Notes: generated from the letters alone by a model not told the origin. 64,000 nucleotides of DNA from Fibrobacter sp. UWEL (GCF_900142535.1 NZ_FRBE01000001.1:124001-188000), one strand, 5' to 3'; counted from the first letter of the stretch, positions 7,689-55,048 are shown. Numbers and translations: made by a program.

Positions 7689-7719
7689 ATATTTGGGCGG
7701 TAATAAAAAGAGGATGACC

Positions 7720-8712
7720 ATGATCGTTTCTTGGATGACCACCAATAAGTGTAACTTGACCTGTAAGCATTGCTACCAGAATGCTGGTGATACAAGGGCT
7801 CGTGAGCTTACTACAGAAGAAGGCCATAAGCTCATTGATGAAATCAAAAAGGCTGGTTTCAAGATCATGATTTTCAGTGGTGGCGAACCCATGACTCGCC
7901 CCGATATTGTGGAATTGGTGGAACATGCATCCCGCGTGGGCCTTCGTCCAGTATTTGGAACCAACGGCACAATGATTACTGCAGAAATGGCCCAGAACCT
8001 GAAGAAGGCTGGTGCCATGGCTATGGGTATTAGCATCGATAGTATTGATCCTGGTCGTCACAATAAGTTCCGTGGTTTGGATAATGCTTTTGAATTGACC
8101 TTGGCTGGCATTGAAAATTGCAAGGCCGCTGGTTTGCCCTTCCAGATTCACACTACCATCATGGACTGGAACCAGGGTGAAATCCTTGAAATTATGGACT
8201 GGGTCAAGGAAATCGGGGCTGTGAACCATCAGATCTTTTTCCTGGTGCCTGTTGGTCGCGGTAAGGAAATTGCGGATCACGCCCTTCATGTGGCTGAATA
8301 TGAAAAACTGCTCCGCTCCATTATGGAGAAGAGCCGCACCTTGGGTATTCCGGTGAAGCCCACTTGTGCTCCTCAGTTCCTGCGTATTGCAGACCAGCTG
8401 GATGTAAAGACTCGCTACACTCGCGGTTGTCTTGCTGGTTTGGATTATTGCATTATTAACCCGGTGGGAGAGGTTCGTCCCTGCGCCTATATGACGGAAG
8501 TTGCTGGCGACGTGCATGAAACTCCCTTTGATGAAATCTGGGCTAATGCTGAAGTTTTCAAGAAACTCCGCACCAAGGCGTACGAAGGCTTCTGCGGTAA
8601 GTGTAAGTATAACGATCGTTGCGGTGGCTGTCGCGCACGCGCTGCCTATTATCACGATGGCGACTATATGCACGAAGATAACAACTGCGCTTACGGTCGT
8701 GGCGTAAAGTAA
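7720..8712 (+). CDS. Radical SAM/SPASM protein, AhbC/NirJ-like
   Basis: The protein has the radical SAM cluster motif CNLTCKHC near residue 12, the SAM-binding GGEP, and a C-terminal SPASM-type Cys set (GCLAG, RPCAYM, CGKCKYNDRCGGCRARA, NNCAYGRG). This spacing and the MIVSWMTTNxCNL start fit NirJ2/AhbC, enzymes of siroheme-derived heme synthesis that remove side chains from didecarboxysiroheme. That is family knowledge; other SPASM maturases are possible. Start ATG 7720 has AGAGG 6 nt upstream; ATG 7714 is too close to it. It likely forms an operon with the next two genes. Confidence 0.85.
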   Translation: MIVSWMTTNKCNLTCKHCYQNAGDTRARELTTEEGHKLIDEIKKAGFKIMIFSGGEPMTRPDIVELVEHASRVGLRPVFGTNGTMITAEMAQNLKKAGAMAMGISIDSIDPGRHNKFRGLDNAFELTLAGIENCKAAGLPFQIHTTIMDWNQGEILEIMDWVKEIGAVNHQIFFLVPVGRGKEIADHALHVAEYEKLLRSIMEKSRTLGIPVKPTCAPQFLRIADQLDVKTRYTRGCLAGLDYCIINPVGEVRPCAYMTEVAGDVHETPFDEIWANAEVFKKLRTKAYEGFCGKCKYNDRCGGCRARAAYYHDGDYMHEDNNCAYGRGVK

Positions 8713-9707: not shown

Positions 9708-9713
9708 TTCAGG

Positions 9714-9746
9714 GGTCTCTCGGAACATCGGGAGACCTTGTTTTTT
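9714..9746 (+). terminator. Intrinsic terminator after tadA
   Basis: GGTCTCTCG (9714-9722) pairs with CGGGAGACC (9729-9737), followed by TTGTTTTTT. Confidence 0.9.
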
Positions 9747-9769: not shown

Positions 9770-10597
9770 ATGACTTTTATTAAATATCTCGCCAGCTCTG
9801 CTGCACTGTTTTGTTTATGTTCCTGTGATAGCGACCAGTACGTTCTTGCTTTCAATACGGAAAACGCACCGGTTCAAACTTATCACCTTGAGTCCAACCT
9901 GAATTCCATTCTTCCTATGGATTCTACCACCACTTCTCCGGAAGCGATGAACACACACCTGCAGGTCCGTGCCTCCAATAGCATGCTGACCTCTTACGAC
10001 GATGGTTCGGCAAAGTTTGAACTGAAGGTGGACTCTGTGGACTACAAGTCCGACAAGCGTACCGTGGAAGAATTCCGCGAAATGGAAAAGGCTGTCTCCA
10101 CCGAAAATTTCCAGTACAAGATGGCTAAGGATGGCATGATCAGTTCCGCCATTCTGGAAGATTCCTTGACCTTGGGTTCCGAGGCCTTGAATCTGGTCCG
10201 TCTGTTCCTCAAGATTCAGCCCATCCTTCCGGGTAAGGCTGTTGCCGTGGGTGAAACCTGGGAACGTCCCACCGAAATTCCGGGTCGTAACGGCAATACC
10301 ACCGTCTACAAGACTTTCACCTTCCAGGACTACTACATTCACGATGGCGTCCAGATGGCTCGCGTCGGCATGAACCTGAAGTATCGGGAAACCGCTGATT
10401 CCACTTCCGACGTGCTGATGGAAAGCAATGGCTTCATCCTGGGCTCTGGCGATATTCTTTTCGATATTACCCACGGCGTTCTGGTGAACGCAAGCATTGA
10501 ACTGTCTGGTGACTTGAAGATGAACGATATCGTGTCCGGAAGCATCATTCCTGATATGCATGTCATCCAGAAGATTAAGCTGAGGAGCGAATTTTAA
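9770..10597 (+). CDS. Exported lipoprotein, first gene of the motor operon
   Basis: The 275-residue protein has a signal peptide ending in a lipobox-like LCSC (about Cys19). It is otherwise hydrophilic and beta-rich. A LPGKAVAVGETW segment near residue 155 resembles DUF6263-like exported proteins, but I would not rely on this. The stop codon overlaps the next start (TAATG), showing translational coupling to the beta-helix gene. It is a probable envelope component with unknown role; its link to the downstream motor genes is inferred from spacing. Confidence 0.8.
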   Translation: MTFIKYLASSAALFCLCSCDSDQYVLAFNTENAPVQTYHLESNLNSILPMDSTTTSPEAMNTHLQVRASNSMLTSYDDGSAKFELKVDSVDYKSDKRTVEEFREMEKAVSTENFQYKMAKDGMISSAILEDSLTLGSEALNLVRLFLKIQPILPGKAVAVGETWERPTEIPGRNGNTTVYKTFTFQDYYIHDGVQMARVGMNLKYRETADSTSDVLMESNGFILGSGDILFDITHGVLVNASIELSGDLKMNDIVSGSIIPDMHVIQKIKLRSEF

Positions 10598-11316
10598 TGC
10601 GTTTTGCAAAGTTGACTAGCTGTTTTGCTGGGCTTCTTGCCCTGGCCTCTTTTGCCGTCGCTGGCGAAAGACCTTTCCCGCAGGTAGAAAACGGCAAGGT
10701 TTCCTTACTTGCTTCTGAAAGCCCGTACCTGTTGGAAATGGGTGTGGTGTTTTCCGCCAAGGATACTTTGGACATTGAACCTGGGGTGACCGTCCTTATG
10801 GGCGAGTATGCCAAGATTACCTTCCGTGGTACGGTTCGCATCCAGGGTTCCGAAGAAAAGCCCGTTGTGTTCCGTAGCCAGAATCCTTCCTTTAGCTGGA
10901 ACGGCATTCATTTCATTTCTCTGAATCGCCCCTTCGAAGTAAAGAACCTGCTGGTGGAAAATGCTTTCCGCAATACGGTTTTCCGCTCTAAGGGCATTTT
11001 CGAAAACGTTCGTTTCGTGAACAACTACTATGGACTCTGGCTGGACGAAGCTCCGGAAATTTTCCTGTCCCGCTGCGAATTCGTTCGCAACCGCTTTGCT
11101 CTTTCCGCACGCGCAAGTAAGGCTATCTCTGCTGAAACCAAGATTTCCAATAACGTCTATGGTCTTTATCTGGAAGCTGGTGGCCAGTTTGAAGGGGATC
11201 AGTCTCTCGTGAAGAACAACCTGGAATCTGATGTCCGTAAGGAATCCGAAGAACTGGCAAGCCAGAACAAGCGCGTAAACCGCTCTATCTGGCAGCGTAT
11301 CGAAACTGCATTCTAG
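10597..11316 (+). CDS. Exported right-handed beta-helix protein
   Basis: A 22-residue signal peptide (cleavage near AVA-GE) is followed by about 215 residues of short parallel-beta-helix-like repeats (for example VRIQGSEEKPVVFRSQ, FENVRFVNNYYGLWL, and LSRCEFVRNRFALSA). The start is typical of periplasmic or surface beta-helix proteins (LDIEPGVTVLMG). No Asp triad of a pectin lyase is evident, so enzymatic activity is not claimed. It overlaps the lipoprotein stop by 1 nt and ends 8 bp before the DUF3348-like gene. Confidence 0.82.
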   Translation: MRFAKLTSCFAGLLALASFAVAGERPFPQVENGKVSLLASESPYLLEMGVVFSAKDTLDIEPGVTVLMGEYAKITFRGTVRIQGSEEKPVVFRSQNPSFSWNGIHFISLNRPFEVKNLLVENAFRNTVFRSKGIFENVRFVNNYYGLWLDEAPEIFLSRCEFVRNRFALSARASKAISAETKISNNVYGLYLEAGGQFEGDQSLVKNNLESDVRKESEELASQNKRVNRSIWQRIETAF

Positions 11317-11324
11317 GAGCCTAA

Positions 11325-12233
11325 GTGCAAGATTCCTTCCGCAGATCCATTCGTAAGATGACGGGCAATAGCGTCCGTCTGAACGTGCGCCCGAACCGTT
11401 CATCCATGGTGGCAAATTTGTCACAGTCCATGATGGTGACGTGGTCTATCGTTCTTTACGAACATCTGGATGCCATGCTGAACGATCCTACGGCAAATGT
11501 GGGATCCTCGGAATTGATTTCCTACAGTGAAACTGCATGGAAACTTGCTGATGCTAGCTTCCCTCAGATCATTGCAGATGCCAATAAGCTTTACGATGAA
11601 TTCCGCACGAAGTGGATTCAACGTTTTTCCACCGAAGAAGTGACTCGCTTGCTTCTGGAAGGTGGAGACTTCCTCCAGCATGATGAAGAAAAGGGCTGGA
11701 CGCTTACCGTCAAGAATAACAAGCAGGACATTAACGCTTTCTATTCCGCTACCATCCATTTGCTGGTCAGTGACGCAGAACCGCTCTTTGTCCGTATGCA
11801 CGGTCGCGTGATGCAACTGCAGGAAAAGCTTTGCAAGTACTGGCATGGGGAGTCCGCTGTGGATGCGGTTTCCAAACTCTTGCCCAGTCTTGAAGCGTCC
11901 CTCAGGGATAAGGAAAACGCTATGGTGGTATCCTTGCGTGGTTCCTTGAACGCTCTGGCCAAGAAACGTTTTGCGGCAGCCTTTGCAACAAAGGGAACCG
12001 GACACTACTACACGTCGGCGGCGTCCTGTGCACGTAATGTGGGACGTTACTGGAATCCCCATTATGCTTACGAAAATGGCTTCCTGGCCTTTACTGATGA
12101 TTTTTGCGATTATGCCCGCGGGCTTACGATTCAAGTGATTGAATGGTACCAGAGTAAGTGGGCGCTCTTCCTCCGCGGATTTAACCGTGGTCAGTTGAAT
12201 TTGTTTGAAACAGTGGCCTCTCCTAAGGCCTAA
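11325..12233 (+). CDS. DUF3348-like cytoplasmic protein of the motor operon
   Basis: The 302-residue soluble protein has no signal or membrane span. The pattern VANLSQSMMVTWSIVLYEHL and the helical stretch around residues 150-215 (PLFVRMHGRVMQLQEKL through SLRGSLNALAKKRFAAAF) match my memory of DUF3348, which precedes DUF802, OmpA and DUF2894 genes in proteobacteria. This is recalled similarity, not a search result. The start is GTG 11325, with AGGAG 6 nt upstream formed around the previous stop codon. It is 11 bp before the motor subunit gene and is probably a cytoplasmic partner of its tail. Confidence 0.75.
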   Translation: MQDSFRRSIRKMTGNSVRLNVRPNRSSMVANLSQSMMVTWSIVLYEHLDAMLNDPTANVGSSELISYSETAWKLADASFPQIIADANKLYDEFRTKWIQRFSTEEVTRLLLEGGDFLQHDEEKGWTLTVKNNKQDINAFYSATIHLLVSDAEPLFVRMHGRVMQLQEKLCKYWHGESAVDAVSKLLPSLEASLRDKENAMVVSLRGSLNALAKKRFAAAFATKGTGHYYTSAASCARNVGRYWNPHYAYENGFLAFTDDFCDYARGLTIQVIEWYQSKWALFLRGFNRGQLNLFETVASPKA

Positions 12234-12244
12234 GCAGGTGAAAA

Positions 12245-14137
12245 ATGAAGAATACATTCACATCCGTCTTGTTGTTAACTGTTGTGGGCCTTGCTGTTCT
12301 GGTGGCAGGCGCTAGTTATTTTGGCGCACCGCTGTTTGGCTGGATGATCATGATCGCCATCTTCGTGGTGTTCATCTTGGAACAGGTCGTCGCCCTCAAG
12401 AAGATTAAGCAGGTGGCTGCAGAAAATGAAGTTCTTGAAACTAGCAAACATCGCGGCATTTACGGCATCTCTGGCGATGGCGTTGTGGCAAAACGCATTG
12501 CTCTTGCCAAGAGCCTCCTGAATAAGAAAATCCGTCTGGATTCTCCCATCGCCTACGAAGTGCTGAATAACAACGTGGATATCAAGGTTCCCCGCAGTTC
12601 CGGCGGTACGGTGATTCTCCTTGGCTTGATGGGTACCTTCTTCGGTCTCATGGCGTCCATCGCTACAGCAGGTGGCGCTATGGATACTACCACACAGGGA
12701 ACTCTGGATACCATCCAGCACTTGTTCCAGAACATGAAGGGTATCTTCGGTACTTCTCTTTGCGGCTTGTTTGCTGCCTTGATCTTGAATGCAACCCGCA
12801 GTTTGATGATTTCCGCCCGTGATAACTTTATGGCTCGTTTGGATGCCTTGACCTTGAATATGCAGGGTGATGTGTCCGAAGAAGAATCTGACAAGACGGG
12901 TCTGGAACGTTTGTTCGAAAGTGTGGAAAAGAATCTCGCCGCTGTAACTGCTTCCGTTCAGGAAGGCCTTACGGGTGTTGTCAATAAGGTAGGGGAGGAA
13001 CTGTCCGCAACTACCGCCAAGATGAACGATAGCGTTTCTGCTTCCGTGGATCAGGTTTCTGCAAGTGTGAACGCTTCCGTCCAGAAGGTTTCCGCAGAAA
13101 TGTCCGCTTCCGTCAAGACCTTGAATGAATCTCTCGCTTCTGCCATGAGCGGCATGAACGATGCTGTGAAGGATCTGGGTGGTTCTGTCAGTGCATCCAT
13201 TTCTACCGCCTTCGCTCCTATGGAGAACAGTGTGAAGGCTCTGTCTGCTTCTGTGGAATCCATTCCCTCTAAGCTGGACGAAAAGCTGAACGGTCTTTCT
13301 GCAGCTCTGGATTCCGGCTTGGGTGACATTGCTGGTGGCGTAAAGGCAGGCCTCAATGGTGTGGCAGATGATGTGAAGTCCGCCTTGAGTGATGTTTCCG
13401 GCAGCGTCTACGATGGCCTCTATAAGGTCAGCGAATCTGCTCAGAACTCTCTGGCTGATTCCTCCAGCAGCATTGCAGAATCCATTGCGGATCAGGTCAA
13501 GCAGTCCAACGAACAGTGGAATGAATTCATGCAGCGTCTGGAAGAACGCGCTACCTCCAATGTGGATGCACAGCGTGAAGGTCTGGAAACTCTCAAGAAT
13601 GTCGCCCTTCAGGTGGCTGAAAAGGCTCAGGCCGGTTCTGCAGAACTTTCCGCTTCCGTCTCCGAAAAGCTGGGTACTCTTTCCAACGACATTCTGGCTG
13701 CCTTCCAGAAACTTTCCGAAACCTCTTCCGTATTGTTGGAAGCCCAGAAGGCTCTCACGGAAAGTATCGACAACCGTGTGGTCAAGGAAAAGGAAGCTAC
13801 CGACGCTCTTGGCGGAAACATTGTGGAAACCGCAGAACTCATGCGTGTGAACCAGTCCGAACTGAGCGCTAACTTGGAAATGCTCCGCGCCGGTCTGGAA
13901 ACCATCCTCGAAAAGCTCAGCGGTGATACCGCCGAACGTGACGAAGAAGAAAACTTCATCGAACACTTGAACCAGTCTCTGGAAGCCTTCCACGAACGCG
14001 CCAGCGAAGTGCTTATGGAAAATGCGGTCAAGACTCAGGAAATCCTCCTGGAAGTCCTGGAACAGACCCAGCGTGTGGGCCACTCCGCTTCTGTTGCATC
14101 CTCCGCAAGTTCCGAAGAATCCAAGGTCGAGGAATAA
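12245..14137 (+). CDS. MotA/ExbB/ZorA-like motor subunit with long helical tail (DUF802-like)
   Basis: The 630-residue protein has four predicted spans (about 8-27, 33-50, 121-142, 166-187). The last two carry LGLMGTFFGLM and FGTSLCGLFAALI, like the proton-channel spans of MotA, ExbB, TolQ and ZorA. Residues 210-620 are one long amphipathic helical tail rich in Ser, Ala and Val, with SVSASVDQVSASV-type repeats. This is the layout of DUF802 proteins and of ZorA, whose tail projects into the cytoplasm. It is followed 3 bp later by a MotB-like partner. I infer an ion-driven rotary complex; what it powers is unknown. Confidence 0.85.
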   Translation: MKNTFTSVLLLTVVGLAVLVAGASYFGAPLFGWMIMIAIFVVFILEQVVALKKIKQVAAENEVLETSKHRGIYGISGDGVVAKRIALAKSLLNKKIRLDSPIAYEVLNNNVDIKVPRSSGGTVILLGLMGTFFGLMASIATAGGAMDTTTQGTLDTIQHLFQNMKGIFGTSLCGLFAALILNATRSLMISARDNFMARLDALTLNMQGDVSEEESDKTGLERLFESVEKNLAAVTASVQEGLTGVVNKVGEELSATTAKMNDSVSASVDQVSASVNASVQKVSAEMSASVKTLNESLASAMSGMNDAVKDLGGSVSASISTAFAPMENSVKALSASVESIPSKLDEKLNGLSAALDSGLGDIAGGVKAGLNGVADDVKSALSDVSGSVYDGLYKVSESAQNSLADSSSSIAESIADQVKQSNEQWNEFMQRLEERATSNVDAQREGLETLKNVALQVAEKAQAGSAELSASVSEKLGTLSNDILAAFQKLSETSSVLLEAQKALTESIDNRVVKEKEATDALGGNIVETAELMRVNQSELSANLEMLRAGLETILEKLSGDTAERDEEENFIEHLNQSLEAFHERASEVLMENAVKTQEILLEVLEQTQRVGHSASVASSASSEESKVEE

Positions 14138-14140
14138 TCT

Positions 14141-14779
14141 ATGCGTTTCAAGAGAGACGAAAACAGCAATCCCTGGATGGCCTATACCGACTTAGGTGTA
14201 GCCCTGGTTTCGCTGTTCATTCTGGCTTTCGTAGCTATGGCTACCCTCAAGGAACAGAAGGCAGAAGACTTGACCCGTACCGAAGAAGAAGTGCTGAGCT
14301 GTCAGGAAGAAATGCGAAAGATTGCGGCTGAACGTAATGCCCTTCTTTCCAAGAGCTTGCAGACTTCTATTGAGGCAGGCCTTATCGCTCTTGAAGGTGG
14401 TAAGATTCAGATTCAGGCCCAGTTCCTGTTTCCTATCAATGGCGCAGACTTGACCAACGAAGGCGTTAGCGTGATTCGCGGAATCAGCAAGGGTCTTCTG
14501 GAAGCCATGGATTCTACAGACGTCATCATGGTTAGTGGCTTTACGGATGATACTCCCATCAAGTCTAAGTCCTATACCAACTGGAACCTTTCTACGGAAC
14601 GTGCGGTCAATGTGGTGAAGACTTTGATTAAGGAAGGTTTCCCGCCGGAACGCCTGTTCGCCGCAGGCTTTGGCGAACACCAGCCCAAGTATCCCAACGA
14701 TACGGAAGAACATCGTCGCTTGAACCGTCGTGTAGAAATTGGCGTGACCCCGCTCCAGATGATGGAAAAGTCTAACTAG
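14141..14779 (+). CDS. MotB/ZorB-like OmpA-family stator protein
   Basis: The 212-residue protein has a short cytoplasmic N-terminus and a single membrane span (about 15-35) that starts with Asp17 in AYTDLGVALVSLF, the position of the essential proton-binding Asp in MotB. A coiled linker (about 38-70) leads to an OmpA-type peptidoglycan-binding domain (75-205) with VSGFTDDTP, NWNLSTERAVNVV and NRRVEIGV. It should anchor the motor to the cell wall. The gene begins 3 bp after the motor subunit stop. Pairing with the long-tailed channel protein strongly supports a complex. Confidence 0.9.
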   Translation: MRFKRDENSNPWMAYTDLGVALVSLFILAFVAMATLKEQKAEDLTRTEEEVLSCQEEMRKIAAERNALLSKSLQTSIEAGLIALEGGKIQIQAQFLFPINGADLTNEGVSVIRGISKGLLEAMDSTDVIMVSGFTDDTPIKSKSYTNWNLSTERAVNVVKTLIKEGFPPERLFAAGFGEHQPKYPNDTEEHRRLNRRVEIGVTPLQMMEKSN

Positions 14780-14789
14780 GTTTGTGTAG

Positions 14790-15446
14790 ATGCAGGCTCG
14801 TCTTGAAACATTGAAACAGTCCATTGATGCTATCCGCAAGAGCGGAAAGCTTCCTCACTGGCGTATGGTTTATGCAGACAACCTGCTGAATCGTGCCGGT
14901 GAATATGTGGCTGTGGATCGTCTGCCCGAAGCAAAAATGGTGGCCGATAAGCTGGACCGCTGGATTTCTACCCACACGCCTAAGGTGGAGTCCAGTAATC
15001 GCTTTGCTGAAAATCCCATGGTCTTCTGGAATGCAGAAATCCTGGGTGGCATTTCTGAACGCATTAAGAAAACTCTGAACGAAAAGCGTGCCCTCGTTCC
15101 CAATACGGAACGAGAAACGATTTTACGCCGTTTGAACCTGGTAGAAAGCTGGGTGAAAGAGGGTAACGTCCTGGCGGCTCACGAAGAACTTCTTTCCCTT
15201 CGTGGTGCTTTAATTTCCCGTTTGCGTCGAAGCTATCGTGCTCGCCTGGTTGCTGTTGATTTGTACCAGGGGAATGTGGTTCAGCCTGCAGGTAGCCTGG
15301 TGGGCCTGTACAATGCCCGCCATACTTTGGAAGAAACCTTCCATGTGGTGGGTGAACGCGATCCCATTTGGGTCGAAGACTTCCTGGAAATCTATAACGA
15401 CCTGTTCCGCATCGTGGAACGCCTGGTGCCTCAGGATAAGAAGTAA
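14790..15446 (+). CDS. DUF2894-like cytoplasmic protein, last motor-operon gene
   Basis: The 218-residue soluble helical protein opens with LETLKQSIDAIRKSGKLPHW and then WRMVYADNLLNRAGEY with LDRWIS. This resembles the N-terminal pattern I recall for DUF2894, the fourth gene of the DUF3348-DUF802-OmpA-DUF2894 set. It has no signal, membrane span or catalytic motif. It starts 10 bp after the MotB-like gene, and a terminator-like hairpin follows 45 bp after its stop codon. Role unknown; it may bind the cytoplasmic tail or ring. Confidence 0.75.
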   Translation: MQARLETLKQSIDAIRKSGKLPHWRMVYADNLLNRAGEYVAVDRLPEAKMVADKLDRWISTHTPKVESSNRFAENPMVFWNAEILGGISERIKKTLNEKRALVPNTERETILRRLNLVESWVKEGNVLAAHEELLSLRGALISRLRRSYRARLVAVDLYQGNVVQPAGSLVGLYNARHTLEETFHVVGERDPIWVEDFLEIYNDLFRIVERLVPQDKK

Positions 15447-15461: not shown

Positions 15462-15590
15462 TTGCAGCTTTGTTGACGTGCAAAAGCTATTCCTACAAAA
15501 ATACTTGTAGGTCTTTTTGTGTGCCAAAACACTTTTAACAAAAATATTTGTAGGTCTATTAGTGTGCAAAAGCGCTTCCAACAAATTTCA
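15462..15590 (+). repeat. 43-bp tandem repeat, three diverged units
   Basis: Units begin at 15462, 15505 and 15548. Shared blocks are TTGTAGGTCT, GTGTGCAAAAGC and ACAAAAATAT, with unit 1 the most diverged. The array starts 16 bp after the motor operon. Confidence 0.7.
15492..15518 (+). terminator. Terminator-like hairpin inside the 43-bp repeats
   Basis: CCTACAA (15492-15498) and TTGTAGG (15505-15511) form a perfect 7-bp stem spanning a unit junction, followed by TCTTTTTG. It would end the motor operon. Confidence 0.65.
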
Positions 15591-16160
15591 AACCCAAGAA
15601 TAGCCGGGGTAGTTGCTTGTTATGCGGACTGCTTGAAAGACCTTGGACAGATTGTTCCCGATCGGCCGGCGCTACCATTGAATAAACTGCATAAAGCCCG
15701 AATTGAAGCTTACAACAATTGCCATAAGGCCCTGGAATCATTGAAAGGTTTTGTTTCTCATAGTGAAAATCCCTGGTTTGAGCCCTTGGATAATGCCTTT
15801 CGGCGGTCTCTGTATCGAGTTCAAGTATCCCTTGCAAGGTCAATTTTAGATAATGCTTTCGCGGTGGCGTCTTCCGTCCCGTGGAATGAAAAGGATCTGT
15901 TCTCCTTGAATTCCCGCATGGAACAATTTATTGCCTTGAGCAGGGATTGCCACCAATGGGAACGTTTCAATGTGGAAGCGAAACGCGTCCGAAAGAGTAA
16001 GAACCATATGGCAGCCCGTAGAAATTGCGTTGTTGTTTATAGGTGCATTCTGGAACTGGCAAAAAACTATTCGGTCCAGGGAGACAAAGAGTGCTCGGAA
16101 TTTCTCTCCTGGCTAAAGACTGCATCGCATACTACAGATGAATGCACAGGCCGTAGCTAG
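15564..16160 (+). CDS. Hypothetical soluble protein
   Basis: The open frame continues upstream to a GTG at 15519, which would put the start inside the tandem repeats. I prefer GTG 15564, with TAGG about 8 nt upstream, but the start is uncertain. The 198-residue product is basic and helical with several Cys and no signal or membrane span (for example FRRSLYRVQVSLARSIL and RRNCVVVYRCILELAKNY). I recognise no family. It lies alone between the motor-operon terminator and a convergent Rpn gene. Confidence 0.5.
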   Translation: MQKRFQQISNPRIAGVVACYADCLKDLGQIVPDRPALPLNKLHKARIEAYNNCHKALESLKGFVSHSENPWFEPLDNAFRRSLYRVQVSLARSILDNAFAVASSVPWNEKDLFSLNSRMEQFIALSRDCHQWERFNVEAKRVRKSKNHMAARRNCVVVYRCILELAKNYSVQGDKECSEFLSWLKTASHTTDECTGRS

Positions 16161-16222: not shown

Positions 16223-17047
16223 TTAAAGTTCCTTGATTTCCTCAGGAGAGAGACCTGTAATTTCAGCGATATCCTTGATGGCGTAGCCCTTATCGCGGAA
16301 ACCCTTGGCCAATTCCTTGTTCTTGGAATCTGCTCCCTCGGCAAGTCCTTCCTTGAGTCCCTTCTTGTAGCGAATGTTGAGTTCCTGTTCCAGAGTCATA
16401 TAAGCCTTCCTTGCTGCGGGGTCCATGCGGTACTTTTCGACCAGCTTGTGGATGCGCTTCATCTTTTCGGATTCGCACTTCTTGGTGGCGAAATACTGCA
16501 TGTATTCGCGAGTTGCCTCGTCGTCCATTTCGGAGTACTTCTTAAAGATATAATAATTCTTGTAGCAGAGGTCTCCCATCAAAATATTCGGGTCAGATTC
16601 CTCGCGGTTCTGGAACTTGTAAACGGGCTTTCCCTTCTTGAAAATGTCGGAAGGGCAGATGAACAGGATGTACTGTTCCTGGAGTTCCTCGTAGTCTGCG
16701 CCCTTGGCCAGGGCGTCCAAATCACACATCCCCTGATAATAACGTGCCCGCTTGGGAAGTTCCCCGGTATTCTCCATCTGCAGTTCGATATCAAACTGCC
16801 GGCCCACCTTAGTCGCGCCACCAGCGCCAGAAATGTCCTCGCGAACATGCACGTCAAAACGGACGCTCTTGTGGAAGGGATCCTCCTGGGACGCAGCCTC
16901 CGAAACAACGGAAATCTTATCAATGTTGACCTTCAGAACGTCCTGCAGGAAATCTCTGGCCACGTCCACATTGCTGAACACCTTCGTAAACATGAAGTTG
17001 TCCGTGATGTCCAGCTCCTCATAGGGCTTCATTTTGTATTCACTCAT
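16223..17047 (-). CDS. Rpn-family PD-(D/E)XK nuclease / putative transposase
   Basis: The 274-residue protein opens with the family pattern (LDITDNFMFTKVFSNVDVARDFLQ). It has the catalytic-like VGRQFDIELQM (D-x-E-x-Q) and a typical GKPVYKF plus NYYIFKKYSE middle. The C-terminus (KEGLAEG, KELAKGFRDKGYAIKDIAEITGLSPEEI) is related to that of the Rpn gene at the window's left end, but with a shorter repeat. A good SD (GGAGGT) precedes ATG 17047. It is transcribed alone from its own region and ends at a strong terminator. It looks intact. Confidence 0.88.
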   Translation of the reverse strand: MSEYKMKPYEELDITDNFMFTKVFSNVDVARDFLQDVLKVNIDKISVVSEAASQEDPFHKSVRFDVHVREDISGAGGATKVGRQFDIELQMENTGELPKRARYYQGMCDLDALAKGADYEELQEQYILFICPSDIFKKGKPVYKFQNREESDPNILMGDLCYKNYYIFKKYSEMDDEATREYMQYFATKKCESEKMKRIHKLVEKYRMDPAARKAYMTLEQELNIRYKKGLKEGLAEGADSKNKELAKGFRDKGYAIKDIAEITGLSPEEIKEL

Positions 17048-51619: not shown

Positions 51620-54600
51620 ATGTGGAAAGTTAAAGGTGCTGTTCGCTACTTTTTGTCCATCCTTGCAACGACCTTTGTGCAGATGGCTGTGTTTATTTAC
51701 GCCCAGAAGATTCTTTCCGGCTCTTTTGCCGACGCCGCCAGCGGTCAGACCTGGCAGAACTTCATGCTGCAGATTTTCTTCATCGCCCCTTATGTGGTGA
51801 TGGTCTTCTTCGCAGGTTTCTTCACCAATAAGTTCTCCAAGAATAAGGTGCTGGCCTGGTCTTCACTGATGATGACCGCCTTTATTATCGCCCAGTCGGT
51901 GCTTGTGACCTGCGGCGTTCCCCGTGTGGCCTTCTGGCTTTCTATCGGATTGAGCTGTGGCTTTGCCATTCATAGTGCTGCCAAGTACGGTATCGTGAAG
52001 GAAATGTTTGGTGTTCGTAACTTGAGCTACGCCAACGCCTTCCTGCAGATCTTTAGCCTGATTGGTTTGATTCTTGCTTCCTGGTTCGTGATTGTGGGTG
52101 TGAACTTGATTGATGTGGCCCAGCTGAAGAACTATGAAGCGGTCCACCGCATTACCTCTCATTCTGTAGTGATTCCCTGGATTGTGACAGGCGTTAGTGT
52201 TTTGGGTACGGTGGCAAGCTTCCTAGTTCCCAAGGTCAAGTATGAAAACAAGAACGTGAATATGTCCAAGGTGAAGAAGCACCTGAGCCTGGGCTGGCGC
52301 GTTCCCACCCTTCGTGCATCCATTATCGCTCTGTCCATGTTCTGGGCCTTGGCTCAGGTGTTCGTCTTGATGTTCCAGGATGTTTCTGGCTCTCATACCA
52401 TCAATATGATGAGCACCTTTATGCCTTTTGCTGTTGCAGGCCTCATGGTGGGCGCTATCTTTGCCGCTTCCCGCTCCAAGGACTTTATTGAAACGGGCTT
52501 TATCCCTATGGGCATGGTGGGCGTGTCCGTGTGCATGTTCTTCGTGCCGTTTTTGGTCCATCCGGCCGCTCTTATTGTACTTTATTCTTTGATTGGCTTC
52601 TTCGGCGGTATTTTCCTGGTGCCGGTGAATGCCTTGCTCCAGTACAATACCCGTCCCAATAATTCCGGTTCCGTACTTGCTTTTGCCAACTTGATTCAGG
52701 CTGTGGTCCTGATCTTGTTCCTGTTCCTCTACTCCTTCATGGTCCACTATACGGAAATCCGTCCCCAGCTTTATTTCCTGGGTCTGGGTATTATTTCTGC
52801 GGTTGTGTTCTTCTGGACCATCTCCAACTTGCCTCAGGCAACGGTCCGTACTCTGCTGCGTCTGGTGTTTAACCGTTATCGCATTCGTGTTCAGGGCGTT
52901 CAGAACATTCCTAACGAAGGTCCGGTGCTGTTGGTGGGTAACCATCATAGCTTTATTGACTGGGCCATGATCCAGATGGCATCTCCTCGTCCCTTGTGCA
53001 TTGCTAGCAATAAGGACCATTTCGAACGTTGGTACCTCCGCGCAATCCTGAAGCGCTTGGGTATGATCCGTATTGACAATCGCCATCCCGCAACCGCCAT
53101 GGAAAAGATCCATGAGGCTCTTCTTGCGGGTAAGGCTGTGGTGATTTTCCCCACTGGTGAAGTTTCCAAGTCTCCTCATGTGGAACCGTTTAACATTGAT
53201 TATTCCAAGGCTATTGAAGGTACGGAAGCCTCCATCATCCCGTTCTACATCCAGGGCCTTTGGGGTTCCAACTTCAGCTATAGTGGCTCCGATATGTATG
53301 GCGCCTCCTCTGACCGCGCCGTTACCGTAGCCTTCGGTGAATCTATTCCTGCCACCACACCTCCTAACGAGGTTCGTGCTATTGTTCGTAAGGTTTCTAT
53401 CGACGCCTGGAAGTATGCGGTGGACTATACCCGCCCGATTGCCGACTCCTGGATTCGTACCTGCAAGCGCTATGTGAAGAATGGCCCTGCCATCTATAGC
53501 CCCGATGGAGGTCACCTTTCTGGCTTTAAGCTGATGGGTGCCGTGATGGCTTTCCGCGGTCTTCTCAAGAAGAAGCTGGGTAAGAAGGAACAGAATATCG
53601 GTATTATGTTGCCGCCTAGCCCTGCGGGTGTCATCGTGAACCTAGCCCTCTGGGTCATGGGTAAGACCAACGTCAACCTGAACTACACTTCCTCTGTAGA
53701 CAACGTAAAGTTCTGCTGTGACAAGGCGGACGTACAGACCGTGATTACCAGCCGTCAGTTCGTAGAAAAACTGAAGGGCCGCGGTAACGATTATTCCCAG
53801 GTGGCTTCCGACAAGGTTCGTTTGTTCTATGCGGAAGACCTGATGAAGGAAATTCCCAAGGCAAAGATTGCCTTCTTCCTGGTCCTGTGCATCATTATGC
53901 CGTCCTGGCTCATTCGTATGGTGTTCTGCAAGCGCACCTCCATGAATAGCAATGCGGTAATCGTGTTCAGTTCTGGTTCCGAAGGTACTCCTAAGGGGGT
54001 TGAACTGACCCAGCGTAACCTGATGGGCAATATCCAGCAGTTGGCATGTATCTTGAACGTGAGCCGCGGTGACGTGATGCTTTCTGAATTGCCGCTGTTC
54101 CATAGCTTTGGCCTGACGGTGACCACCTTGCTGAACTTGACCGAAGGTTGCCCCATTGTGGCGGTTGCTGACCCCACGGACGTGAAGACCATGGCCCGCG
54201 TCTGCTGCGAATTCCATGTGTCCCTCATGGTGGCAACGCCTACCTTCCTGAGAGCATTTACGGTTAGCCGCTATGTCCATCCCTTGGTCTTTAAGTCTGT
54301 TCGTCTGATTATTGCCGGCGCAGAAGCCATGCGTCCGGAACTGTCTACAGCATTCCGCCTGAAGTTCGGTAAGGAAGTGCTGGAAGGTTACGGCTGTACG
54401 GAAACCGCTCCGGTGGCCTCTACCAATACGGAAAACACCTTGATGAATGACTATACCACCTTGCAGGTCAATAACAAGCCTGGTACGGTGGGACCCGCAC
54501 TTCCGGGCACTCAGTTCCTCATTGTGGATCCGGACACCAATGAACCGCTGCCTACGGGTGAAGCGGGCATGATCTTGATTGGTGGCTGCCAGGTGATGAA

Positions 54601-55048
54601 GGGCTACCTGAAGGATCCGGATCGTACTAATAGCGCCATCATCGTTAAGGATGGTACTCGCTACTATCGTACCGGCGACAAGGGCTTCCTGGATGAAGAC
54701 GGCTTCCTGACTATTGTGGACCGCTACAGCCGATTTGCAAAGCTGGGTGGCGAAATGGTGAGCTTGGGTGCTGTGGAAAAGAAGATTCAGGACACCAAGG
54801 TTCTGGAAGGTTATGATTACTTGATCACCACCGTTCCCGATGCCGCCAAGGGTGAAAAGATCGTTCTACTCTATCAGGGTGATAAGGAGCCGAAACAGCT
54901 TCTCTCTGAATTGCGTTCCGGCGACTTCCCGCCCATTATGTTGCCCTCTGCTGCATTCCCGGTGGAAAAGGTTCCCAAGCTGGGTACCGGCAAGGCGGAC
55001 TTTACTACCGCCAAGAAGGTGGCTCGCGAATTGATGGGGATTAAGTAA
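51620..55048 (+). CDS. MFS-PlsC-acyl-CoA synthetase fusion (Aas/LplT-like)
   Basis: The 1142-residue protein joins three modules. An MFS transporter (1-400, about 12 spans) resembles the lysophospholipid flippase LplT. A PlsC acyltransferase (415-640) has the H-x4-D motif at His442-Asp447 in GNHHSFIDW and FPTGEVSKSP. An AMP-forming acyl-ACP/CoA synthetase (650-1142) has VFSSGSEGTPKGVELT, EGYGCTETAP and YRTGDKG. It probably imports lysophospholipids and re-acylates them for membrane repair. SD GAGGT precedes ATG. The next gene follows by 11 bp. Confidence 0.94.
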   Translation: MWKVKGAVRYFLSILATTFVQMAVFIYAQKILSGSFADAASGQTWQNFMLQIFFIAPYVVMVFFAGFFTNKFSKNKVLAWSSLMMTAFIIAQSVLVTCGVPRVAFWLSIGLSCGFAIHSAAKYGIVKEMFGVRNLSYANAFLQIFSLIGLILASWFVIVGVNLIDVAQLKNYEAVHRITSHSVVIPWIVTGVSVLGTVASFLVPKVKYENKNVNMSKVKKHLSLGWRVPTLRASIIALSMFWALAQVFVLMFQDVSGSHTINMMSTFMPFAVAGLMVGAIFAASRSKDFIETGFIPMGMVGVSVCMFFVPFLVHPAALIVLYSLIGFFGGIFLVPVNALLQYNTRPNNSGSVLAFANLIQAVVLILFLFLYSFMVHYTEIRPQLYFLGLGIISAVVFFWTISNLPQATVRTLLRLVFNRYRIRVQGVQNIPNEGPVLLVGNHHSFIDWAMIQMASPRPLCIASNKDHFERWYLRAILKRLGMIRIDNRHPATAMEKIHEALLAGKAVVIFPTGEVSKSPHVEPFNIDYSKAIEGTEASIIPFYIQGLWGSNFSYSGSDMYGASSDRAVTVAFGESIPATTPPNEVRAIVRKVSIDAWKYAVDYTRPIADSWIRTCKRYVKNGPAIYSPDGGHLSGFKLMGAVMAFRGLLKKKLGKKEQNIGIMLPPSPAGVIVNLALWVMGKTNVNLNYTSSVDNVKFCCDKADVQTVITSRQFVEKLKGRGNDYSQVASDKVRLFYAEDLMKEIPKAKIAFFLVLCIIMPSWLIRMVFCKRTSMNSNAVIVFSSGSEGTPKGVELTQRNLMGNIQQLACILNVSRGDVMLSELPLFHSFGLTVTTLLNLTEGCPIVAVADPTDVKTMARVCCEFHVSLMVATPTFLRAFTVSRYVHPLVFKSVRLIIAGAEAMRPELSTAFRLKFGKEVLEGYGCTETAPVASTNTENTLMNDYTTLQVNNKPGTVGPALPGTQFLIVDPDTNEPLPTGEAGMILIGGCQVMKGYLKDPDRTNSAIIVKDGTRYYRTGDKGFLDEDGFLTIVDRYSRFAKLGGEMVSLGAVEKKIQDTKVLEGYDYLITTVPDAAKGEKIVLLYQGDKEPKQLLSELRSGDFPPIMLPSAAFPVEKVPKLGTGKADFTTAKKVARELMGIK

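What the first reader, a model, noticed from the sequence alone, without database searches (positions are those of the whole stretch)
11325..15446. Uncharacterised four-gene ion-driven motor module (DUF3348-DUF802-OmpA/MotB-DUF2894 type)
Four genes spaced 3-11 bp apart encode a soluble helical protein, a four-span MotA/ExbB/ZorA-like channel with a tail of about 420 helical residues, a MotB-like protein with the channel Asp and an OmpA domain, and another soluble protein. This matches from memory a conserved but functionally uncharacterised proteobacterial gene set, and its motor pair resembles Zorya ZorA/ZorB. The effector genes of Zorya (ZorC, ZorD helicase, ZorE HNH nuclease) are absent. 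The set may therefore be a motor used for a different task, such as envelope sensing or force transmission.
Basis: partly seen in the sequence, partly recalled or inferred. Interest (0 to 1): 0.85.

Follow-up and report, generated by a model that had tools for sequence, protein, structure and literature searches.

The report
Core Zorya-III-like motor operon, motor sometimes lost
These four genes are a distant version of a known ion-driven phage-defence machine (Zorya type III), but in this bacterial class every near-complete genome carries it, nearly always as one copy like a housekeeping gene, and some lineages lack the motor while keeping the rest, which suggests that the motor is not the essential part.

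Summary
The four genes are real and read as described: F (302 aa), A (630 aa, four membrane spans, long tail), B (MotB-like, channel Asp17, OmpA domain) and G (218 aa). The genome is Fibrobacter. They are not an uncharacterised set but a divergent Zorya type III (ZorF-ZorA-ZorB-ZorG), a published system whose Stenotrophomonas member reduced phage plating. Pfam finds no DUF3348, DUF802 or DUF2894, but profiles of the Fibrobacterota F and G families rank proteobacterial DUF3348 and DUF2894 proteins first among 894 ORFs; tail tip and motor core are also homologous.

Two results appear new. (1) F occurs in 120 of 126 class-Fibrobacteria genomes, including all at least 90% complete, nearly always once, syntenic and under strong purifying selection; Cas1 occurs in 39 of the same 126. 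Stenotrophomonas is similar (about 59 of 61 species). (2) In 21 inspected loci from five lineages the operon is F-A-G: B is gone and A keeps only one or two spans plus the conserved tail tip (two losses, or one gain and one loss).

My model: the conserved unit is an F/G/tail-tip hub at the inner membrane; the ion motor is a removable regulator. Composition and motor absence are shown; hub binding and output are inferred.

The parts
11325..12233 (+). F: ZorF-like (DUF3348 superfamily) soluble helical protein, 302 aa
   Evidence: ORF. Class-wide family. Its HMM ranks proteobacterial DUF3348 proteins as the top 28 of 894 ORFs, best E 4.5e-5. AF2 pLDDT 86.8, pTM 0.83, no PDB fold match.
12245..14137 (+). 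A: ZorA-like channel subunit, four spans (residues 5-184), cytoplasmic tail to 630
   Evidence: Weak ZorA hits (PADLOC 1.2e-8, NCBIfam 1.2e-7). Core matches proteobacterial ZorA3 (hhalign P 1e-8) and solved ZorA (2.4e-4). Invariant LG..GT..G / FGTS..G motifs. Four spans.
13595..14044 (+). Conserved tail-tip domain of A (residues about 451-600)
   Evidence: 0.91-0.99 identity to the window in the genus, against 0.86-0.95 for the motor core and 0.35-0.72 for the mid-tail. Retained in all motorless A proteins. Homologous to proteobacterial tail tip (hhalign 97.5%, 6.6e-12; reversed control 3.8e-3).
14141..14779 (+). B: ZorB3-like, channel Asp17, OmpA peptidoglycan-binding domain
   Evidence: PADLOC ZorB3 1.1e-42. 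PF00691 1.2e-16. hhalign to proteobacterial ZorB3 99.9%. Absent as an orthologue in motorless lineages.
14790..15446 (+). G: ZorG-like (DUF2894 superfamily) soluble helical protein, C-terminal GxYN...DPxW motif
   Evidence: Its HMM ranks DUF2894 proteins as the top 10 of 894 ORFs, best 1.1e-4. Invariant G172, Y174, N175, W194. AF2 pLDDT 82, pTM 0.50, no PDB fold match.
9770..10597 (+). Lipoprotein (weak DUF6263), first gene of the probable operon
   Evidence: Lipobox-like CLCSC at the N terminus. DUF6263 2.5e-5, below cut-off. Upstream of F in the motor-bearing genera examined and in motorless family f3, subgroup f3a.
10597..11316 (+). Secreted right-handed beta-helix protein, second gene of the probable operon
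   Evidence: Beta_helix 4.7e-5, below cut-off. Upstream of F in nearly all motor-bearing genera of the family.
9712..9739 (+). Terminator-like hairpin before the operon
   Evidence: 12-pair stem plus T run; consensus match only.
15492..15511 (+). Terminator-like hairpin after G
   Evidence: 7-pair stem plus T run; consensus match only.

Best explanation
The operon encodes a divergent Zorya-type-III machine. A and B form an inner-membrane ion-driven rotor (by homology five A and two B); B is tethered to peptidoglycan through its OmpA domain, and A carries a long cytoplasmic rod. The rod's conserved tip is the docking site for the soluble proteins F and G. In Fibrobacteria this is a vertically inherited core envelope module, nearly always single copy. 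Its indispensable output unit is F + G + the membrane-anchored tail tip, and the motor adds wall-coupled control (gating or force) that can be discarded. Shown: composition, homology, the conserved channel Asp, universal presence, purifying selection, and lineages that lack B and the MotA core but keep F, tip and G. Inferred: stoichiometry, F and G binding to the tip, the motor acting as regulator, and an envelope-surveillance role of which phage protection may be one readout.
For: Same gene order as proteobacterial Zorya III. Homology of all four parts. F in 120/126 class genomes; the six misses are at most 88% complete. Cas1 in 39/126 of the same genomes. dN/dS of F 0.02-0.07 and B 0.04-0.08, like argH 0.03-0.07. 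Fixed housekeeping neighbourhoods. Near-core in Stenotrophomonas, the genus of the tested system. Motorless F-A-G operons in five lineages, no ZorB3 orthologue elsewhere in those genomes, A with one or two spans and, in g17, basic residues after the span, so the tip stays cytoplasmic. Tip at least as conserved as the motor core. F tree: two changes of state.
Against: The Stenotrophomonas system was reported to protect E. coli from phage, so defence may be the main function. In types I and II the motor is needed for activity. Marinobacter is patchy (22/61). F and G homology to DUF3348/DUF2894 is remote (best E about 1e-4 to 5e-5). No F-G-tip interaction was tested, and the output is unknown.
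Confidence: 0.55

Rival explanations
1. It is simply an anti-phage defence system (Zorya III) that has become fixed in the class: phage injection disturbs the wall, B senses it, the motor turns A's tail, and F/G execute abortive or local defence.
For: Published EOP reductions and liquid-culture protection for the Stenotrophomonas nitritireducens system; ZorB3 match 1.1e-42; types I and II work this way.
Against: Universal, nearly always single copy, low dN/dS, no defence genes adjacent (only a generic radical-SAM similarity to viperin models), against patchy Cas1 in the same genomes; motorless versions lack the proposed sensor.
Confidence: 0.25
2. It is a force-transmitting envelope machine analogous to Tol-Pal or Glt/Agl gliding motors, in which the motor plus the upstream lipoprotein and beta-helix protein connect the inner membrane, wall and outer membrane.
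For: Lipoprotein and beta-helix genes lie in the same probable operon in motor-bearing genera; OmpA domain in B.
Against: The long conserved part is cytoplasmic, not periplasmic. The motorless operons keep F, tip and G but lack force generation. The lipoprotein is also present with motorless f3a operons and absent in f2. No TonB/TolA-like gene in the operon. The same genome has six other MotA/ExbB-type matches elsewhere.
Confidence: 0.12
3. The motorless F-A-G sets are a separate paralogous system or decaying remnants, so they say nothing about the motor-bearing operon.
For: F in g15/g17 sits on a long branch (1.59) and is about 50 aa shorter.
Against: No genome carries both forms. F and G are intact and in the same order in many genomes. 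The tail tip keeps its motif. In f3/f5 the location is conserved. Open frames without internal stops argue against decay.
Confidence: 0.05

Closest known systems
Zorya type III (ZorA, ZorB, ZorF/DUF3348, ZorG/DUF2894; Payne et al. 2021, PMC8565338)
   Same: Gene order F-A-B-G; homologous motor core, tail tip, OmpA B subunit, F and G; no ZorC/D/E.
   Different: F and G escape Pfam and PADLOC models and A is only weakly recognised; no DUF802 tail repeats; probable operon also holds a lipoprotein and a beta-helix gene; core in the class; motorless relatives exist.
Zorya types I and II (ZorAB + ZorC/D or ZorE)
   Same: ZorA-like core with cytoplasmic tail; ZorB with channel Asp and peptidoglycan-binding domain.
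   Different: No ZorC, ZorD or ZorE in the operon; sequence similarity of A is weak (1e-4 to 1e-8).
MotAB flagellar stators / TolQR / ExbBD
   Same: Channel architecture, invariant Asp, GT..G and FGTS motifs, OmpA domain of MotB.
   Different: Long cytoplasmic C-terminal tail; F and G partners; no flagellar or Tol genes in the operon.
PRK09040 / NF006547 hypothetical protein family (NCBIfam)
   Same: Best NCBIfam match of B (1.8e-40), full length.
   Different: Below its curated cut-off (138.6 against 194 bits); the family has no assigned function.

Membership tests
Zorya type III | ZorA and ZorB flanked by ZorF and ZorG, order F-A-B-G | tested here: met
   Order and orientation identical to the annotated DUF3348-DUF802-OmpA-DUF2894 loci.
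Zorya type III | ZorB of type III | tested here: met
   PADLOC ZorB3 1.1e-42 against 5.6e-20 for the best ZorB1 model; channel Asp invariant.
Zorya type III | ZorA with MotA/ExbB core and cytoplasmic tail | tested here: met
   hhalign to proteobacterial ZorA3 core P 1e-8 against 7.5e-3 reversed; tail tip 6.6e-12 against 3.8e-3 reversed; PADLOC ZorA only 1e-8.
Zorya type III | ZorF is a DUF3348 protein | tested here: met
   By remote homology only: Pfam PF11828 negative, but the family HMM ranks 28 DUF3348 proteins first of 894 ORFs, best 4.5e-5, AUC 0.957.
Zorya type III | ZorG is a DUF2894 protein | tested here: met
   By remote homology only: Pfam negative, but the top 10 of 894 ORFs are DUF2894, best 1.1e-4, AUC 0.964; shared G-P-[LY]-N ... 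[SD]P motif.
Zorya type III | DUF802 repeats in the tail (seen in the proteobacterial members, not part of the published definition) | tested here: not met
   Present in Dyella ZorA3 (3.3e-25), absent in the window A and the whole own genome.
Zorya type III | Protection against phage | not testable with these tools
   Reported for the Stenotrophomonas member; needs an experiment for Fibrobacter.
Accessory anti-phage defence system | Patchy distribution, variable location, neighbouring defence genes | tested here: not met
   120/126 genomes, nearly always single copy, fixed synteny, low dN/dS, no defence neighbours.
Zorya types I and II | ZorC/ZorD or ZorE genes in the operon | tested here: not met
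   No such gene among the adjacent ORFs scanned with PADLOC.

The most novel reading that the evidence does not exclude
'Zorya III' is at root not a defence system but a conserved envelope-surveillance module of Fibrobacteria and several Proteobacteria. Its working part is a cytoplasmic F/G complex on a membrane-tethered peptide; the ion motor is a removable wall-coupled regulator, missing in several lineages; phage protection is a by-product or a secondary use.
Probability: 0.35. Interest if true: 0.8.

Novelty: new variant of a known kind. Interest (0 to 1): 0.58.

Why it matters
ZorF and ZorG have no known function or fold, and the only published phenotype I found for type III is phage protection. 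Lineages that lack the motor but keep F, the tail tip and G are a natural experiment. They point to the tip as the place where the motor's signal is read out, and they separate 'what the motor does' from 'what F and G do'. They also question whether a system counted thousands of times by a defence finder is mainly a defence system. Both points can be tested with single-gene deletions and pull-downs.

Tried and rejected
Pfam and NCBIfam for DUF3348/DUF802/DUF2894: negative at family level, resolved by profile tests. First hhalign with five proteobacterial sequences was inconclusive for F (P 0.044) and for the tail tip (0.006 against 0.0095 reversed); 66-71 sequences gave clearer values (F 1.6e-3 against 0.27 reversed, G 1.4e-3 against 0.17, tip 6.6e-12 against 3.8e-3). 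A plain HMM of the tail tip did not separate ZorA from background ORFs (AUC 0.50), so that link rests on profile-profile comparison with a reversed control. Possible N-terminal fusion of F in family f2 (G037:C173, 1003-aa frame): an open-frame artefact of GC-rich DNA. Fold search of F and G in the PDB: nothing. PADLOC viperin hit on the neighbouring radical-SAM gene: generic SPASM protein, not taken as defence. Sandaracinaceae L128 has an A/B pair with an unassigned third gene; not resolved. The Hu et al. 2025 Nature paper is not held.

Full report
WHAT IS THERE. The four ORFs are present at the stated coordinates with gaps of 11, 3 and 10 nt. A has four predicted spans and a cytoplasmic tail of roughly 440 residues. 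B has an OmpA domain and the channel Asp, D17, invariant in 15 aligned sequences. Two further genes probably belong to the transcription unit by position: a lipoprotein (9770-10597) and a beta-helix protein (10597-11316), with terminator-like hairpins at 9712-9739 and 15492-15511. The genome is 3.5 Mb. The nearest named records holding the operon are Fibrobacter succinogenes MAGs, with B 91-92% identical.

WHAT IT IS. PADLOC puts B in ZorB3 (1.1e-42) and A weakly in ZorA (1.2e-8). Zorya type III was defined in 2021 as a motor pair flanked by ZorF (DUF3348) and ZorG (DUF2894), and the Stenotrophomonas nitritireducens system lowered phage plating in E. coli (PMC8565338; also summarised in PMC11890865). 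Annotated proteobacterial loci have exactly the order DUF3348-DUF802-OmpA-DUF2894. Pfam sees none of these DUFs in the window, so I tested remote homology. Against 894 ORFs from proteobacterial ZorB3 loci, the Fibrobacterota F profile puts 28 DUF3348 proteins first (best 4.5e-5, AUC 0.957), and the G profile puts 10 DUF2894 proteins first (best 1.1e-4, AUC 0.964). The motor core aligns with hhalign P 1e-8 (reversed control 7.5e-3), shares the LG..GT..G and FGTS..G motifs, and its profile hits solved ZorA (2.4e-4). The tail tips align at 97.5% probability, 6.6e-12 (reversed 3.8e-3). DUF802 is a mid-tail repeat of the proteobacterial proteins and is absent here. F and G are modelled as helical proteins (pLDDT 86.8 and 82.1; pTM 0.83 and 0.50) with no match among solved folds.

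IT BEHAVES LIKE A CORE GENE. F occurs in 120 of 126 genomes of the class, nearly always once; the six misses are 62-88% complete. No match was found in the other classes of the phylum. Cas1, a true defence marker, occurs in 39 of the same 126 (counted by me from the list). In most of the genus the order (radical SAM)-tadA-lipoprotein-beta-helix-F-A-B-G is kept. In families f3 and f5 the operon lies at one place among genes that I read from their sequences as rluD, holA, greA, argJ and glyA (names from my own reading, not from a family scan). dN/dS is 0.02-0.07 for F and 0.04-0.08 for B, the same as argH (0.03-0.07), and higher for A (0.10-0.21), G (0.08-0.17) and the lipoprotein (dS is saturated in several pairs). 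No defence gene is adjacent. In Stenotrophomonas, the genus of the tested system, F is found in 58 of 61 species and B in 59; in one of the F misses B starts near a contig end, so F is probably cut off. Marinobacter is patchy, 22 of 61.

THE MOTOR CAN BE MISSING. In families f3, f4 and f5 and in genera g15 and g17 of the window's own family, the operon is F-A-G (21 loci read). B is missing, and A is either a one- or two-span protein with a coiled coil (f3, f4, f5) or only 168-244 aa: one span, usually a PKIEIP-type repeat linker, and the tip (g15, g17). Nearly every A ends in the same motif (RVNQaE ... ENAxKxQEiLxE; weaker in f4). ZorB3-type B scores 300-356 bits where it is intact, while motorless genomes have nothing above about 100 bits anywhere, the level of unrelated OmpA/MotB proteins in the other classes. 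Basic residues follow the single span in g17, so the tip should stay cytoplasmic (positive-inside rule). On the F tree motor presence needs two changes: two losses, or one gain plus one loss. Since the proteobacterial relatives have the motor, two losses is the simpler reading, but the root is not firmly placed and some branches are long. Within the genus the tip (residues 451-600, 0.91-0.99) is at least as conserved as the core (0.86-0.95), while the mid-tail is free to vary in sequence and length (A 518-632 aa).

HOW IT MOST LIKELY WORKS. By homology A5B2 forms a wall-tethered ion-driven rotor with a cytoplasmic rod; in types I and II the channel Asp, peptidoglycan binding and the rod are all important for activity (PMC11890865). 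The tip is the part shared by rods, coiled coils and repeat linkers alike, and it travels with F and G, so I infer that F and G act on or at the tip and that the rod or linker presents it at a distance from the membrane. The motor would then switch or drive this hub in response to wall state, and lineages without it run the hub unregulated or regulated otherwise. In g15/g17 a secreted redoxin-like protein is coupled to F in place of the lipoprotein. What the hub does is not shown. The core pattern favours an envelope housekeeping or surveillance role over a purely defensive one, but phage protection is the only published phenotype I found.

NOVELTY. Family: known (Zorya III), here a divergent branch. 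I found no paper that reports it in Fibrobacter (one hit holding both words once each, not read), its core status, or motorless forms; the library holds only open-licence papers, so prior notice elsewhere is possible.

Noticed in passing
L108:7673-8203, L110:6538-7080, L111:7201-7782: In motorless genera g15/g17 a secreted redoxin/AhpC-TSA-like protein of about 180 aa directly precedes F, overlapping it by one base or separated by up to 7 bp; it replaces the lipoprotein found upstream in other lineages.
   Followed up: partly
L108:8974-9672, L111:8519-9061, L112:8513-9130, L115:7514-8020: The shortest A proteins replace the coiled coil by PKIEIPKIE-type repeats between the membrane span and the tail tip, an unusual extended linker.
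   Followed up: partly
L128:50-3040: A Sandaracinaceae (Myxococcota) contig has a long coiled-coil protein, a ZorB3-like OmpA protein and a third gene in the G position; possible further branch of the family.
   Followed up: no
window 15519-16160: A 213-aa ORF after the operon has no homologue in any related locus compared; may be spurious or strain-specific.
   Followed up: partly
window 16223-17047 (-): Rpn family recombination-promoting nuclease (TIGR01784, 3e-24) next to the operon, not found there in relatives.
   Followed up: no
window 7693-8712: Radical-SAM SPASM protein syntenic with the operon in most of the genus; matches viperin models (3.9e-23), probably only as a generic radical-SAM protein.
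   Followed up: partly
window 51620-55048: 1142-aa fusion of MFS transporter, acyltransferase and AMP-binding ligase domains (Aas/LplT-like).
   Followed up: no
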